A DNA stretch of 64,000 nucleotides from Candidatus Eremiobacterota bacterium. GTDB lineage: Bacteria > Vulcanimicrobiota > CADAWZ01 > Ess09-12. The notes beneath the pieces were generated by a model that worked only from the letters and a program-made list of their open reading frames with translations, did no database searches and had not been told where the DNA came from. Made by a program: the position numbers and the translations under genes. The stretch lies in contig JAVHLM010000020.1 of the NCBI GenBank assembly GCA_031082125.1, forward strand, positions 62,001 to 126,000, written 5' to 3'. Of this stretch, positions 19,923-28,139 are shown one piece after another. Each line of letters opens with the position of its first letter. Positions within the stretch are counted from its first letter, which is position 1.

Positions 19923-21071
19923 ATGGATCTTTTCTCTCCTTTGTCATGTTCGGGCGCTCAACTCCTTCGCGATTTCCATGGCGAGATGCAGAACCAGCAG
20001 GGGGCGCCGGAATTGCCACGTGCTTCAACGGACTCAGCGCCTGCCGGGCAGCTCCCAAACTGCGGGTCGTCATTTCTTCATTCTTTTTACCTTACCACGC
20101 TGGCAGCCATCGACCGTATCCGTTTTCCGGGAGTTTTTCCCGATCTCACGCAACTTGCCCGGGAACAAAAGCCCCCTGAGCCACCGCTTGAAAAATCCCA
20201 TGATTCTGACGATATGGAAAAGAGTTTCCAGGAACTCTACAGGCGCGATCAGGAGGAGTTCAAGAGAAAAATCGCCACACCCGGTGAACAACCTGAACTG
20301 GCCCGGGACGACAACGATCAGCCTCATCAGGCCAGATACCGAAGAATCAGGAATGCGACACCTTTTGTGCAAGGCACCTCCGACACCGGGGCTATCGCAC
20401 CTGATGATGTGAAACAGGGAAAACTAGGTGACTGCTGGCTCCTTGCCTCCCTTGCCGCACTGGCCAGTGCAAGGCCTGATATCGTTGAGAAGGCGATTAT
20501 CGACCACGGAGATGGTTCATATACGGTCTCCCTGCCTGGCCTGGAGCATGATATGGGGAAGGGACTGGAAGTGAAAGTCGATTCCCTCTTCCCCGGAGGG
20601 GAGGGCCCTGAAGGACGGCCGCTCTACGCCGGTGCCGGCGACAGTGAAGGTGGCAAAAACGAAATCTGGCCCATGCTCATAGAAAAAGCCTTCGCAAAAG
20701 CAAAAATCATGAATTACCAGTATATTGACGGAGATAACCCTGCCATCGCACTGACTTCCCTCACCGGCAAGGAGACCAGGACCATTAAAGTGAATGACGA
20801 AGGCGTCGATGCTTTTGAAGAGATGAAAAGAGGCATTGAAAACAGGTCCCCCATGGTTCTGGGAACGAGAAGATCGACAGGGGAACCGGAAGACGGCAGG
20901 CTCTTTCTGAATGCCGGCCTTAATGACTGCCACGCCCATGCGGTCATTGGCACCTCCATGGAGGATGGTAAAAAGATGGTTCACCTTTACGATCCCCATG
21001 GGAGGGAAATAAAAGTTGAATGGGACAGCGTAAAAAACCTGTTCCAATCCCTCGTCATCCTTTCTGAGTGA
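19923..21071 (+). CDS. Calpain-like cysteine protease (family C2) with N-terminal leader
   Basis: The 382 residues contain a calpain catalytic core: the cysteine motif VKQGKLGDCWLLASLAALA (Cys171), EIWPMLIEKAFAK, and the histidine in CHAHAVIG (His337). The third triad position, normally Asn in NPWG, reads LYDPHG, so Asp357 replaces Asn. The first 160 residues have no signal peptide; they include SFYLTTLAAIDRIRFPG (54-70), which matches a segment of the barrel-like protein encoded at 21550, then a Pro-rich linker and a charged helix. AGGAG lies 7 nt before the ATG. The substrate and site of action are unknown; a leader-dependent extracytoplasmic role is inference. Confidence 0.8.
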   Translation: MDLFSPLSCSGAQLLRDFHGEMQNQQGAPELPRASTDSAPAGQLPNCGSSFLHSFYLTTLAAIDRIRFPGVFPDLTQLAREQKPPEPPLEKSHDSDDMEKSFQELYRRDQEEFKRKIATPGEQPELARDDNDQPHQARYRRIRNATPFVQGTSDTGAIAPDDVKQGKLGDCWLLASLAALASARPDIVEKAIIDHGDGSYTVSLPGLEHDMGKGLEVKVDSLFPGGEGPEGRPLYAGAGDSEGGKNEIWPMLIEKAFAKAKIMNYQYIDGDNPAIALTSLTGKETRTIKVNDEGVDAFEEMKRGIENRSPMVLGTRRSTGEPEDGRLFLNAGLNDCHAHAVIGTSMEDGKKMVHLYDPHGREIKVEWDSVKNLFQSLVILSE

Positions 21072-21549
21072 TGCCTGCCGCCTGTCTCCACTCCCGCATA
21101 CATTGTCGCAGCCTCCCTGTCTCTATGATGTCATACGGTATGCTCCGGATTATAGCTCACTAATGTAACCATATGGTGATCTCTTTATCAGGGCTATTTA
21201 TGGATAGAATGCACACCTGCCTTACCTTCAGAAAATCATTGAAAGCGTGACGAGTATTTTATCGATGTGGTTCTCGGGCTCAGGCGCTCATTTTGAGACA
21301 ATTCCCAAAGGCCCAGATGTTCAGGATTCTCTTTATTATACTCACAGAGCATTACTGACGGCATTCAGGGGGATCCGCTTCCCATACTTTTCTGATGAGC
21401 GCAGCCCAGCTCCTGCGACAGGCTCTTGAGGAAAGCAGAGGCTGCAGTGTATTTTACTCTTGGCCAGATAGCTCTGCCTCCATTAAAAACCGAAGCCCCC
21501 GGTCCCCGGGGGCCTGTTCCGTCAAAGAGCCTCGTCAAGAGGAAGCCCT
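21072..21549. other. Convergent intergenic region
   Basis: Apart from the terminator at its right end I see no gene, promoter or repeat here. A 60-codon GTG-initiated frame at 21247 lacks an SD and family features. Confidence 0.45.
21485..21513 (-). terminator. Intrinsic terminator of the barrel-like gene
   Basis: GCCCCCGG (21495-21502) and CCGGGGGC (21506-21513) form an 8-bp GC stem with a 3-nt loop. On the minus strand it is followed by TTCGGTTTTT (21485-21489 is the T run). It lies 37 nt past the stop at 21550. Confidence 0.75.
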
Positions 21550-22713
21550 CTAAAACTTCACGCCCAGTTTCACGACGGGCTTGAACTTGAAGGCCTCGTC
21601 CTGGTCGCCCTCTATCTGGGGGCCCGCCTTGAGCGACGCATTGACGGTATGACCGAACATCCTGATGGGGAACTTCTTGGAGACTCCCGCATACACCTCG
21701 TAAGAGGCGCCGAACTCTCCCGAGGCCGTCGCGTAGCCCACCTGCTCCTTGGCCTCGACTGACCAGTCATAGCTCATTCCCCAGGCCTTCGCATCCTTTC
21801 CCGAGAGTTCCTGGCGGAACGTGGCCGTGAGGGCCGTGTTGTTCTCGGCGAAATCATGAGTTGCCCCGGCTGCGGCGTCAAGGCGCAGGTGCCTTCCGCT
21901 GCCGAGATCCTTGTCCCAGCGGCGGAAGGCGAGCACATCGGCCGAGAGTGTCCTCTCTCTCTCGGTAGTCCATGAAGTCTCGCCATCCTTCGCCTGACGC
22001 TCCCCTGAAAGGGTATCCACCTCGTGAGCCCGGAAGCCCCCGCGCACTCCCTGGCTTACCGTCCAATCGCCCCTCTGCTCTGTTCTGGAGAGCTCTGTCC
22101 TGAGCAGATCGACTTTTGTCTCGAGGCCGAGGGACGCCTTTCCACCGAGCTTTCCATCTTCGAACTCGGGTTTCACCTTCGGCTTCACGCGGACCCGGTA
22201 ATCCATATAGTCAACCTTGAGCTTGTACGATCCAACTTCTCTTTCATAGTTGGCGCTTTTCACCCTTCTGAGCGAATCGTCGGCGCTCTCGAAGACTCTT
22301 TTCAGCATTCCCGGCCTGGCTTCTTTCTTCCCGCTGAGGAGGGCGCTGGCATCAATTCCTATGCGGCCTTCCTCGGAAGGGGCATCACCTGCTTCCAGGG
22401 CTTTCTCATCGGCCCCGGCTGCCGGTGTGGCGGCCTTTTCTTCGGGGGCCACCCTGGGCATTATGTCCCTCTCGAGGAGGGGGAGGCCGCCGGGATTCCT
22501 GAGGGAATCGATGTGCTGAAGGGTCCTGTTGTAGAAGGAAGCAAGGTCCCTTACGCCGTTGCCTGTGATTTCGCCTTTCTGCACCGAGGGGGTTTCATTT
22601 CCCGGGAAGGCGCAGCTCTCTTTGCTGTCTGCGGTCTGGCGCCCGGCGGTATCTACGGCAACCGGCACCTGTTGAGTGACATACGCTTCGTTGCTGCTCA
22701 GTGCACTTATCAT
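21550..22713 (-). CDS. Barrel-like protein with leader motif, possible outer-membrane protein
   Basis: The 387 residues lack an ordinary signal peptide. Residues 59-80 (SFYNRTLQHIDSLRNPGG and onward) match the leader of the calpain-like protease at 12 of 22 positions. From about residue 170 the sequence alternates polar and hydrophobic residues in strand-like runs with many Arg/Asp/Trp and ends in VKLGVKF; a terminal Phe after a beta-strand is typical of outer-membrane barrels. The ATG at 22713 follows GGGGGAGAG; the longer start at 22743 has no SD. A consensus promoter and a perfect inverted repeat lie upstream. Export without a Sec signal would be odd for a barrel, so the location is uncertain. 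Confidence 0.65.
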   Translation of the reverse strand: MISALSSNEAYVTQQVPVAVDTAGRQTADSKESCAFPGNETPSVQKGEITGNGVRDLASFYNRTLQHIDSLRNPGGLPLLERDIMPRVAPEEKAATPAAGADEKALEAGDAPSEEGRIGIDASALLSGKKEARPGMLKRVFESADDSLRRVKSANYEREVGSYKLKVDYMDYRVRVKPKVKPEFEDGKLGGKASLGLETKVDLLRTELSRTEQRGDWTVSQGVRGGFRAHEVDTLSGERQAKDGETSWTTERERTLSADVLAFRRWDKDLGSGRHLRLDAAAGATHDFAENNTALTATFRQELSGKDAKAWGMSYDWSVEAKEQVGYATASGEFGASYEVYAGVSKKFPIRMFGHTVNASLKAGPQIEGDQDEAFKFKPVVKLGVKF

Positions 22714-24181: not shown

Positions 24182-26317
24182 CTATCGCCGGGGCCTTGCG
24201 TAGACCCTCACAGGATTGCCGTAAAGCCCTCCTCCCAGGTCCCCGGGGTCCGCAATTCTGATTCTCTCATGGATTCCCATTTTGCTTGAGAACAGGCCGT
24301 CTTCATCCTGAATGACCGCATGATAGCACAGGGGACCCTGGTAATTCGCATAATCGGGCCCCCAGGCTCCCCTCCTTATCTCGTAGTCTTTGCCGTCTGA
24401 GGGGGTAAACCCGTATAAAACGACCTTCTCAATCCCTTCCCGGAGGGAATAGTCCAGGGTGTCAAGGGGCTTGAACCCATGCGCTCCATAAAACTCGTCA
24501 AATCTTTCCACGAACACCTTGGGCTCGATAATCTCTTTCTCGTTTCGGACACTGTTTGCGATGCAGTTGAAGCGGGGCTTCCCATCCTTGCCGTCGGTGG
24601 CCCCCGAGAGAGCCTCGTACTTTTCCGGCGTGAGCCTGGGGAGGTCCTGCTGGTGCTCCCGGAGATACCGGTCGAATGTTTCTCTCACCTCGGGGTGTGC
24701 CCTGGTATCCAGCTTTTTTCCTGCTTCCTCGGGAGCGCCTTTATGGTCAGCAGCAGCATCGCCGGCAGGGCAGGGCCGGCTTTCATCATATCCATGTGCC
24801 TTTGGCGGGAGCATGATGTCAGGCTTTTTCCCAAGCTCTTTTGCCGCCCTCAGAAGCTCAATTGCCCCGGAGGCCATGCTGTCAGCCACTTTGAGGGCCT
24901 CGGGAACGGGGGGATTGAACTCCTTGCCGTCCTCCATGGTAAGCGCATAGATTCCCTTGCGGCGATAAAGGTAATCGTCAGTCTGGCCGTTGACGTTATA
25001 CGACAGCTCCGGCCTGTAGCTTTCTCCCTGCGGCTTCCCCACGGCGCCTATCATGCGCTTCTGAAGATTCTCAAAGATTTCGCGGTCGTGAGCATCAGTG
25101 ACGCTGTCGGGAATCATGACCTTCTCGCCATGGGAGTGGAAATCACAGGCGACCCTTATCTCGGGATGCTCATCGACAATGCCGGCGATATGCCTTGTCT
25201 CGGGCTCTGAAAAGGGGGCCGGCCCCGGATAGCCATCGTGCTGTGTCCATCTTCCCAGAAGCTTGTTATTGTCTGTGGGATGGGGCAGCATCCCCTTCTC
25301 CCTGATTATCTTCTGCTGCTCCGGCGAGGCGCCCTGTGGGTATGGCGTCCACTCGATATCAAAATTCCTGTTGATGTCAACGCCCTTGTCGCCGCTTCCG
25401 CTCCCGGCGAGGGGAGCCCTTGTCCTTCTCCATTCAGGATCGTCATGGATGGCGTAATTGAGGCCGTCGGGGTTTGTGACAGGGACCACATAGATATTCA
25501 ATGAATCAACAAGGTCCGTCAGCTCCCTGACCTTGGGATCATCGCTCCCGGGCCTGTAGTTTGCGCAGAGCTGCTCCAAGAGCTCGACCATCGCAAGAGG
25601 ATTCATCTTCTCCCTTCCATGGGGAGATGCCATGAAAAGCGCGCCGGGCTTTGAGGCTTTGTCACCTTTCCCGCTCGATATTGTGACATAGCGGAGCGGC
25701 GCGGGCCCCCGGAGCGAGGCGTTCTTCCCGTCATAGCCGGCAGTGCCGTACTCCCGCGTGGTTACCTTGACAAGGTCAGGATATTTTTCTGCAAGCTTCA
25801 ACACCCTGTCGTCTATCTGCCGCGCATCCATGTAGTCATTGACAAAACCCCTGGCGAAAGCGGTCCTGGAAGATCCGGGGGCGGTGGACGTCACCCCGTA
25901 GCGCGCCGCAAAATTAATGCCCTTCTCTTCTCCCTGAGGCGCAGAGGGTGCTCTTTCCTGTAAAAGGCTCAATGTGCCATTTTTATTGGCCACCAGGCTG
26001 CTGTCCCGATGCTGATCACTCGAAGGCGCCGCCTGTGGCTCTGCCTGGAGAGAAGCCTGAGGGGGAGCTGCTTCCGCCTGGGGCCCGGGGGCCCGGGGGA
26101 TCCTGAAATTATCCCTCAGTGCATCAATGTGGGCTTCTGCCAGATCAGCAGGTGCCCTGCCTTGCCCGCGCACTATATCGCCGGAGCTTTCCATGGTGTC
26201 CTGCGGTTCGGCTGAAGGGCTCTGTTCTCTTTCAGAGCTCTTTTCACCATGGGGCGCCCTTATGTTGTTCAATTCCCTGCCATAGCCGATCTGTGCACGC
26301 ATGTTCATGATAAGCAT
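24182..26317 (-). CDS. M14 zinc carboxypeptidase with shared N-terminal leader
   Basis: The 711 residues have three parts. Residues 1-53 (MLIMNMRAQIGYGREL, AEPQDT, RGQG) are 32/53 identical to the S8 protease encoded at 43178. Residues about 155-490 are an M14 domain with zinc ligands His233/Glu236 (SPHGRE) and His394 (CDFHSH), substrate-binding DINRN (Asn316-Arg317) and catalytic Glu462 (TMEDGKEF). The C-terminal domain (about 540-711) has FNCIAN (Cys585), KVVLYG, YHAVIQ (His666) and FSSKMG, reminiscent of the NCIA-type (DUF7689-like) domain. No Sec signal is seen. GAGGGGG precedes the ATG. CTTGAG direct repeats lie upstream. Probably cleaves peptides, perhaps cell-wall stems, outside the cytoplasm (inferred). 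Confidence 0.85.
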   Translation of the reverse strand: MLIMNMRAQIGYGRELNNIRAPHGEKSSEREQSPSAEPQDTMESSGDIVRGQGRAPADLAEAHIDALRDNFRIPRAPGPQAEAAPPQASLQAEPQAAPSSDQHRDSSLVANKNGTLSLLQERAPSAPQGEEKGINFAARYGVTSTAPGSSRTAFARGFVNDYMDARQIDDRVLKLAEKYPDLVKVTTREYGTAGYDGKNASLRGPAPLRYVTISSGKGDKASKPGALFMASPHGREKMNPLAMVELLEQLCANYRPGSDDPKVRELTDLVDSLNIYVVPVTNPDGLNYAIHDDPEWRRTRAPLAGSGSGDKGVDINRNFDIEWTPYPQGASPEQQKIIREKGMLPHPTDNNKLLGRWTQHDGYPGPAPFSEPETRHIAGIVDEHPEIRVACDFHSHGEKVMIPDSVTDAHDREIFENLQKRMIGAVGKPQGESYRPELSYNVNGQTDDYLYRRKGIYALTMEDGKEFNPPVPEALKVADSMASGAIELLRAAKELGKKPDIMLPPKAHGYDESRPCPAGDAAADHKGAPEEAGKKLDTRAHPEVRETFDRYLREHQQDLPRLTPEKYEALSGATDGKDGKPRFNCIANSVRNEKEIIEPKVFVERFDEFYGAHGFKPLDTLDYSLREGIEKVVLYGFTPSDGKDYEIRRGAWGPDYANYQGPLCYHAVIQDEDGLFSSKMGIHERIRIADPGDLGGGLYGNPVRVYARPRR

Positions 26318-27486: not shown

Positions 27487-27515
27487 TTGATTTTTGTTGT
27501 ACCTTGGGTTATACT
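27487..27515 (+). promoter_or_regulatory. Promoter of the MazEF-type toxin-antitoxin operon
   Basis: TTGATT (27487-27492), a 17-nt spacer and TATACT (27510-27515). The predicted start of transcription is near 27522, about 13 nt before the antitoxin ATG. Confidence 0.65.
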
Positions 27516-27534
27516 ATTGGTAGGAGTGATGCCC

Positions 27535-27789
27535 ATGGCTACCATAAAAACCGCCATATCCATTGAAAAAGACCTCTTTACCCGGGTTGAAGAGCTTGCC
27601 CAGGTCATGCATGTTTCCCGAAGCAAGGTGTTCCAGGAAGCCTTGCTCGCTTATCTGGAAAAGTATGAAAACCAGCAGCTGCTCGCCGAGCTTAATCGTG
27701 CCTACGCAGACAGCACCACAACTGCAGAACAGGATTGGCTTCACAACACAAGCATACACCATACAAAAATAGTTAAAGACCAATGGTAA
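27535..27789 (+). CDS. Ribbon-helix-helix antitoxin (MazE/CopG-type)
   Basis: The 84-residue protein begins with MATIKTAISIEKDLFTRVEE and VSRSKVFQEALLAYL, a ribbon-helix-helix DNA-binding domain; the charged C-terminal part would bind the toxin. AGGAG lies about 9 nt before ATG 27535, and the ATG at 27529 is too close to it. The gene overlaps the toxin gene by 7 nt. Such antitoxins usually repress their own promoter, here at 27487-27515. Confidence 0.85.
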   Translation: MATIKTAISIEKDLFTRVEELAQVMHVSRSKVFQEALLAYLEKYENQQLLAELNRAYADSTTTAEQDWLHNTSIHHTKIVKDQW

Positions 27790-28139
27790 TTGAACAAGGC
27801 GATATATACTGGATTGAGCTCCACGCCCCGACAGGCTCTGAACCGGGGTACCGCCATCCCCATGTGGTTGTTCAGAATAATCTTTTCAACCGGAGTAAGC
27901 TCAATACAGTAGTAGTCTGCGCCCTGACCTCAAATCTGCAGAGAAGGACCGCCCCGGGGAATGTTATACTCGCCAGAGGAGAGGCAAACCTTCCCAAGCA
28001 CAGCGTCGTTAACATAACCCAGCTTGTTACGGTAGATAAATCGGCCTTTCGAGAAAAGATCGGAAAGCTTTCCCGGGAGAAAGTGGCGGAAATACTCAAT
28101 GGAATACGCCTGCTCACCGAACCGCGGGAAGTTGACTAA
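27783..28139 (+). CDS. MazF/PemK-family endoribonuclease toxin
   Basis: The 118 residues match MazF/PemK: N-terminal EQGDIYWIELHAPTGSEPGY (family RGDVYWVxLxPxxGxEpxxxRP), the strand RHPHVVVQNN and later HSVVNITQLVTVDKSAF and a final helix SREKVAEILNGIRLL. It acts by cutting mRNA or other RNA at short sequences; the sequence specificity cannot be read here. It starts inside the antitoxin gene, a layout typical of type II systems. Confidence 0.85.
   Translation: MVIEQGDIYWIELHAPTGSEPGYRHPHVVVQNNLFNRSKLNTVVVCALTSNLQRRTAPGNVILARGEANLPKHSVVNITQLVTVDKSAFREKIGKLSREKVAEILNGIRLLTEPREVD

What the first reader, a model, noticed from the sequence alone, without database searches (positions are those of the whole stretch)
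19923..22713. Calpain-like protease and barrel-like protein share a second leader motif
Residues 54-75 of the calpain-like protein and 59-80 of the barrel-like protein match at 12/22 positions (SFYxxTLxxID, then R, PG, P and L). The M14 leader also contains HIDALR followed by P (63-74). The four proteins may share one diverged leader module before a Pro-rich linker.
Basis: seen in the sequence. Interest (0 to 1): 0.7.

Follow-up and report, generated by a model that had tools for sequence, protein, structure and literature searches.

The report
Shared docking leader on effector-like proteins
A little-known bacterium puts the same short helical start segment on many unrelated proteins, among them proteases, annexins and cell-wall cutters, which looks like an address tag that a dedicated partner reads to send them to one place, probably out of the cell.

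Summary
The motif is real. Residues 54-75 of the calpain-like and 59-80 of the barrel-like protein are 12/22 identical. They belong to an ~80-residue N-terminal module on 14 proteins of this 7.4 Mb Eremiobacterota genome and 33 proteins in 9 of 149 genomes of the phylum. Models leaving out both window proteins still find them. M14 is not a member. The module matches nothing in Pfam, NCBIfam or PDB.

It is a disordered start, one predicted helix and a linker. Tails are unrelated: calpain, annexin, SLT, VanY, NlpC/P60, LysM, HNH, PTP-phytase. None of 23 leaders looks like a Sec signal.

At eight loci in seven genomes a leader gene lies beside or near a small acidic protein and a MerR regulator; in four the regulator's C-terminus resembles the acidic protein. 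Best reading (inferred): the helix is a docking/export tag read by the acidic protein. The exporter is unproven: a flagellar-type type III route has circumstantial support and negative neighbourhood tests; type VI was not tested.

The parts
19923..21071 (+). calpain-like protein, 382 aa: leader + linker + Peptidase_C2 domain
   Evidence: ORF; Pfam PF00648 E 2.3e-25 at residues 133-368
19923..20165 (+). N-terminal leader module of the calpain-like protein
   Evidence: HMM matches (window = G000:C20:62001-126000)
20082..20147 (+). core helix motif, residues 54-75
   Evidence: 12/22 identity with the barrel protein
20319..21026 (+). Peptidase_C2 domain, residues 133-368
21550..22713 (-). barrel-like protein, 387 aa from ATG 22713 (397 aa from GTG 22743): leader + linker + strand-rich tail
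   Evidence: ORF; no Pfam family
22474..22539 (-). core helix motif, residues 59-80 (ATG numbering)
   Evidence: predicted helix at 61-82 in GTG numbering
21721..22254 (-). strand-rich tail (predicted strands)
   Evidence: single-sequence AlphaFold2, mean pLDDT 37.5, so only a hint
24182..26317 (-). M14 carboxypeptidase + DUF7689: tested and NOT a member of the leader family
   Evidence: domains; leader score at shuffle level

Best explanation
The motif is the core of an ~80-residue N-terminal sorting leader: a disordered, lysine-poor start, an amphipathic helix (consensus LxxFYNxxLxxIDxLRxPG) and a flexible linker, placed before unrelated effector-like domains. Shown: it is homologous across at least 33 proteins in 9 of 149 genomes of the phylum, lies near the start of the protein, and its tails are unrelated. 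Inferred: the helix is a docking tag read by a small acidic, probably helical protein (pI 4.1-4.3) encoded beside one or two leader genes per genome together with a MerR regulator, which in several cases carries a related acidic domain. The partner would act like a secretion chaperone serving many scattered substrates, and the regulator would sense unbound partner or substrate. Also inferred: the tag leads to export by a non-Sec route, because many tails act on peptidoglycan and no leader resembles a Sec signal.
For: Homology. Unrelated tails; 8 of the 14 own-genome members have a tail domain over Pfam's cut-off, 10 of 14 at E < 0.01, and 6 of 14 carry a peptidoglycan-acting or -binding domain, two of these six (CHAP, PG_binding_1) below cut-off. 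No Sec-like stretch: 0 of 23 leaders reach mean hydropathy 1.8 over 15 residues, against 30% of 332 other genes. Helix as a unit: predicted helix 61-82, pLDDT about 77-80, surroundings disordered; the helix occurs twice in L027 and, weakly, again in L026. Core locus: leader + acidic protein + MerR at eight loci in seven genomes; in 2.11 Mb of the own genome the acidic model scores E < 1e-50 at two places only, one adjacent to a leader gene and one about 3.3 kb from one. The model of the acidic proteins hits the MerR C-terminus at i-E 2.9e-20, 2e-8, 1.2e-9 and 1.4e-9 in four of the eight loci. A leader-like helix ends the small protein upstream of the acidic gene in three of four cases tested (0, 1 and 2 of 2000 shuffles as good; two of the three are orthologues), not in the fourth.
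Against: No binding, export or expression has been measured. Most leader loci lack the acidic and MerR genes (13 of 15 own-genome leader loci examined), so one partner must serve distant genes. Neighbours of leader genes do not have leader-like N-terminal composition (p 0.52). The 15th own-genome leader, at the L228 core locus, is only weakly matched (E 0.89; domain i-E 0.0019). Core loci in other genomes were seen only because leader loci were fetched, so their specificity there is untested. The calpain tail has no need of export in itself. In L022 and L026 the open frame runs on upstream of the leader and the start codon was chosen by me.
Confidence: 0.5

Rival explanations
1. The export route is a type III machine: the leader is a T3SS-type signal plus chaperone-binding segment, and the effectors leave through the flagellar apparatus or a second, scattered flagellum-derived export gate, perhaps for predation as proposed for the needleless T3SS* of Myxococcus. 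(A sharper form of the best explanation, not its opposite.)
For: 7 of 9 leader genomes have six or more FHIPEP matches against 4 of 140 others (p 4e-8). The own genome has several extra FHIPEP proteins and a second lone FliP. The only HrpK1-like proteins in 149 genomes lie at two leader genes of one genome. An 80-84 aa protein encoded after flhA in three leader genomes is also encoded next to leader gene L026 and is fused to a leader in G028.
Against: Leader genomes are mostly the large ones; among 14 genomes of 5 Mb or more the link is 7 of 11 against 0 of 3, p 0.19. Leader genomes G026, G028, G030 and G148 have a single FliP. Neighbours of FHIPEP genes are not leader-like (p 0.28). Extra FHIPEP/FliP proteins resemble flagellar models more than injectisome models. 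The HrpK1 match is to part of the profile (best stretch 11-108 of 251). The 80-84 aa protein has no known family, and its other copies (L207, weak L189) show no link to leaders.
Confidence: 0.3
2. The leader serves another contact-dependent system (T6SS, eCIS, T7SS), like MIX, FIX or RIX for T6SS.
For: Architecture is like that of RIX: a conserved domain defining polymorphic effectors that lack canonical signals (start of abstract of PMC10435454 in the listing). Tails suit attack on other cells.
Against: Phage_sheath_1 in 0 of 9 leader genomes (9 of 149 overall); WXG100 in 1 of 9 and not in the own genome. T6SS genes were not searched for.
Confidence: 0.12
3. The leader is an internal targeting tag: it gathers enzymes on a scaffold or granule inside the cell, like encapsulation peptides (recalled), with no export.
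For: One helix with flexible flanks is the usual form of such tags (recalled); calpain, phosphatase and HNH tails could work inside; the acidic protein could be the scaffold.
Against: SLT, VanY, NlpC/P60, CHAP, LysM and PG-binding tails act on the cell wall. No shell or encapsulin gene was searched for.
Confidence: 0.15
4. The leader is a folding or inhibitory propeptide, or merely an inherited start segment spread by duplication, without a sorting role.
For: Paralogous spread within one genome is evident.
Against: Unrelated tails keep the same leader; the helix is repeated in L027 and recurs at the C-terminus of small core-locus proteins, which fits a binding motif better.
Confidence: 0.08

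Closest known systems
RIX (and MIX, FIX, WHIX) domains of T6SS effectors
   Same: A conserved module on polymorphic effectors without a canonical secretion signal (abstract starts, listing)
   Different: No such family among Pfam or NCBIfam matches; here a single predicted helix; T6SS presence not tested
Chaperone-binding domains of type III effectors (and the N-terminal motif of Salmonella SPI-2 effectors; both recalled)
   Same: Disordered start then partner-binding segment within the first ~100 residues; small acidic protein encoded near a substrate
   Different: No classical injectisome found; acidic protein matches no Pfam family over cut-off; binding untested
Needleless T3SS* with Kil pilus of Myxococcus xanthus (passages of PMC12075869)
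   Same: A type III-like apparatus used with prey-lysing activity; the comparison is by analogy
   Different: No Kil or T3SS* genes searched for here; FHIPEP paralogues here are nearer to FlhA
T7SS LXG/WXG100 N-terminal domains (recalled)
   Same: Helical N-terminal targeting modules on polymorphic toxins
   Different: No WXG100 match in the own genome and in 1 of 9 leader genomes; single helix here
Bacterial annexins (PMC3894181)
   Same: Annexin repeats in bacterial proteins
   Different: A term search of that paper's main text found no 'secretion', 'calpain', 'peptidoglycan' or 'LysM'; here annexins carry the leader

Membership tests
Shared leader family (defined here) | Calpain and barrel N-termini match a profile built without them | tested here: met
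   E 5.4e-6 and 1.1e-6 with the own-genome profile, 6.6e-4 and 3.3e-6 with all 21 others; with a profile of other genomes only, barrel 7.3e-4 and calpain missed (8.8)
Shared leader family (defined here) | M14 N-terminus matches the profile | tested here: not met
   0.7-1.2 bits; 169-324 of 500 shuffles as good
Type III secretion substrate | No Sec signal at the N-terminus | tested here: met
   0 of 23 leaders have a signal-like hydrophobic stretch
Type III secretion substrate | Small acidic chaperone encoded beside substrate | tested here: inconclusive
   Acidic protein near one or two leader genes in each of seven genomes; none in the window; function unknown
Type III secretion substrate | Dedicated injectisome in every genome with the leader | tested here: not met
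   One FliP only in G026, G028, G030 and G148; own-genome cluster is flagellar by NCBIfam cut-offs for FlhA and FliP
Type III secretion substrate | Secretion depends on the type III ATPase and gate | not testable with these tools
   needs genetics
T6SS MIX/FIX/RIX effector | T6SS core genes in the same genome | not tested
T6SS MIX/FIX/RIX effector | Match to a known marker domain | tested here: not met
   No such family among Pfam/NCBIfam matches of 23 leaders at E <= 0.1
T7SS substrate | WXG100/ESX genes present | tested here: not met
   0 in own genome; 1 of 9 leader genomes
eCIS cargo | Contractile sheath genes present | tested here: not met
   Phage_sheath_1 in 0 of 9 leader genomes
Calpain family (Peptidase_C2), tail only | Match over Pfam's cut-off | tested here: met
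   89.7 bits, cut-off 23.8

The most novel reading that the evidence does not exclude
A previously undescribed effector-sorting system: a docking helix spread over calpains, annexins, phosphatases and wall-lytic enzymes, read by an acidic chaperone and sensed by a MerR regulator bearing a related acidic domain, feeding a flagellum-derived exporter with expanded FlhA-type gates used against other cells.
Probability: 0.22. Interest if true: 0.85.

Novelty: new variant of a known kind. Interest (0 to 1): 0.62.

Why it matters
If the leader is an export tag, it gives a sequence handle to list the secreted arsenal of large-genome Eremiobacterota, for one group of which predation has been suggested (passages of PMC9259500). 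It also names a candidate chaperone and regulator to test, and offers a case of eukaryote-like calpains and annexins grouped under one bacterial sorting signal.

Tried and rejected
M14 as a third member: rejected. The second own-genome calpain (L002/L138) has at best a faint leader (E 4.1) and was not counted. Viral scans with A6 and A8: no relatives. First genome-contig scan with A5: 79 pattern matches, none confirmed. Plasmid and phage tblastn of one leader (L005): no match. Neighbour composition tests for FHIPEP and leader genes: negative. HrpK1/NolX as proof of T3SS: only part of the profile is matched, so kept as a lead. Fold of the barrel protein: mean pLDDT 37.5, too poor for a fold search, so none was run. 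The 80-84 aa protein as a needle: no family or structure match, so not claimed.

Full report
What was checked. The window is G000:C20:62001-126000 of a 7.43 Mb genome in 69 contigs, 97.6% complete. Records fetched by name for relatives in the same phylum are mostly titled Candidatus Eremiobacterota, so I take the phylum to be Eremiobacterota; the own organism's name is not shown.

Chance. None of 1500 random pairs of N-termini reached 11 of 22; four reached 10. The alignment score of the two N-termini (74) exceeds all 2000 shuffles. Profiles built without both window proteins find both, at E 1.1e-6 (barrel) and 5.4e-6 (calpain) with 12 own-genome leaders, or 3.3e-6 and 6.6e-4 with all 21 others, among 4003 frames. 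A profile of nine leaders from other genomes finds 13 of the 14 own-genome leaders and misses the calpain (E 8.8). A profile of the two window leaders alone finds seven further own-genome members at E < 1e-3. The 4003 frames came from the window and from loci around leader, FHIPEP and FliP genes; with 2.11 Mb (28,412 frames) the same 14 stand out and the next hit is at E 0.89.

Extent. A seven-seed profile of the whole own genome gives 14 proteins, 13 at E <= 4.9e-4 and one, with two units, at 0.009. In the phylum, 9 of 149 genomes have matches at E <= 1e-3: 15 matches (14 proteins) in G000 and 19 in eight others, 33 proteins in all; members of the alignment match it by construction. Two hits of the first, looser search (L033 in G007, L035 in G013) did not pass this second search, and L035 lies in a frame that looks like a tRNA synthetase (my reading). 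No leader matched Pfam, NCBIfam or PDB beyond chance level.

Tails. Own genome: calpain (window), HNH (L004), annexin-like + LysM + transglutaminase-like (L005), CHAP (L007, below cut-off), PG_binding_1 (L021, below cut-off), VanY (L022), SLT (L023), NlpC/P60 (L024), annexin (L025, L027); no family for the barrel protein, L003, L012 and L026. Other genomes: calpain with EF-hand (L032/L153), PTP-like phytase (L071), HrpK1/NolX-like repeats (L036), and a HrpK1-like plus annexin frame downstream of, but out of frame with, leader L030 (L150). Six others given to Pfam (L034, L037, L040, L042, L060, L151) had no family over its cut-off.

Build. AlphaFold2 on the barrel leader with six relatives gives one helix, 61-82 (GTG numbering), block pLDDT 77-80 in its core, and nothing else ordered; mean pLDDT 57.5. 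Leader starts are poor in lysine (0.13 of background), rich in glutamine (3.5 times), and none has a Sec-like hydrophobic stretch. The helix is doubled in L027.

The core locus. Scanning more of the own genome turned up a 15th leader protein, L228:9257-11359, weak by profile but resembling L031/L037 beyond the leader as well (by eye). Next to it lie two small acidic proteins and a MerR regulator. The same acidic-plus-MerR pair lies near leader L025 (L128) and beside leader genes in G028 (L150), G018 (L154), G145 (L159), G030 (L157), and in records L165 and L167, whose leader proteins read the same as L058 of G146 and L060 of G148. That is eight loci in seven genomes. L167 is titled Burkholderiales, which I take for a mis-binned record. 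Gene order varies: same strand in L128, L228, L154, L159 and L165; divergent in L150, L157 and L167. MerR_1 is confirmed by Pfam for the three proteins given. The profile of the acidic proteins also matches the C-terminus of the MerR protein in L128, L228, L157 and L167. In the own genome only two places score strongly for the acidic family in the 28% examined. Most leader loci do not have the pair: among those fetched at length, one of three in G018, one of two (of three known) in G145, one of four (of five known) in G028, none of one in G026, and 2 of 15 in G000. G143 was not examined. I read this as one partner serving many scattered substrates; that is inference.

Link to the flagellum. 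An 80-84 aa Met/Gln-rich protein lies after flhA in G000 and G026 and in the flagellar cluster of G028, beside leader gene L026, and as the tail of a leader protein in G028 (L151). It was absent from 29 FHIPEP loci of other genomes (28 without the leader, and G143 with it), but these loci reach at most 1.5 kb to each side. Two further own-genome copies (L207, weak L189) are not near leaders. The cluster itself is flagellar: FlhA and FliP in G000 and FliG and FliI in G028 pass NCBIfam cut-offs. FHIPEP counts are lower bounds, since only seven candidates were scored in the largest genomes; the tie with the leader is confounded with genome size. Composition tests on neighbours were negative. I therefore keep the type III route as the leading but unproven exporter.

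Other routes. Contractile sheath genes occur in 0 of 9 and WXG100 in 1 of 9 leader genomes. T6SS was not tested.

Literature. A search for Eremiobacter with calpain found no paper; Eremiobacterota with 'type III secretion' found two, one of which I searched and which links type III only to Myxococcaceae in the passages shown. Passages of PMC9259500 suggest predation in Ca. Eudoremicrobium. Passages of PMC9758169 report no flagella in cultured Vulcanimicrobium. RIX and WHIX were seen as abstract starts in a listing. I found no description of this leader in these searches; they cover open PMC papers only.

Verdict. Function as a docking/export tag is likely but untested.

Noticed in passing
G000:C31, C56, C41, C9, C2 and C6:59k (L143-L148): Several proteins carry only the cytoplasmic C-terminal part of FHIPEP (FlhA/SctV), one fused to ankyrin repeats and one ~1940-aa protein with two matches: an unusual expansion of export-gate domains.
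   Followed up: partly
L137:14556-14798 +; L139:8227-8481 -; L151:1303-1809 +; L180; L181: Undescribed 80-84 aa Met/Gln-rich protein in flagellar clusters of three leader genomes, also beside or fused to leaders.
   Followed up: partly
L178:10368-11189 +; L179:8895-9689 +: A second FliP-like protein encoded alone, outside any flagellar operon, in two genomes.
   Followed up: partly
L141:685-3156, L132:1-607, L136:12661-15048, L138:11262-13649, L228:16125-18668: Repeated ~800-aa family starting ...LPDEEELLHL...EDMLLLPEPYE; one copy has a partial match to IscB (E 1.1e-11, 44 bits, cut-off 175).
   Followed up: no
L140:7750-8478 -: A homologue (by eye) of the HNH tail of leader protein L004 without the leader, divergent from an extra FHIPEP gene.
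   Followed up: no
L127:422-4114 + (L005): A very long NQTP repeat between the leader/annexin-like part and LysM plus transglutaminase-like domains.
   Followed up: no
L128:4649-4846 +; L157:9492-9677 -; L167:6365-6709 -: Short Cys-rich protein (MP[FI]CPF...ECF) just upstream of the acidic gene in three genomes.
   Followed up: no
window 24182-26317 -: M14 carboxypeptidase fused to DUF7689.
   Followed up: no
window 27487-28139 +: Two small adjacent genes that look like a MazEF-type toxin-antitoxin pair (by eye).
   Followed up: no
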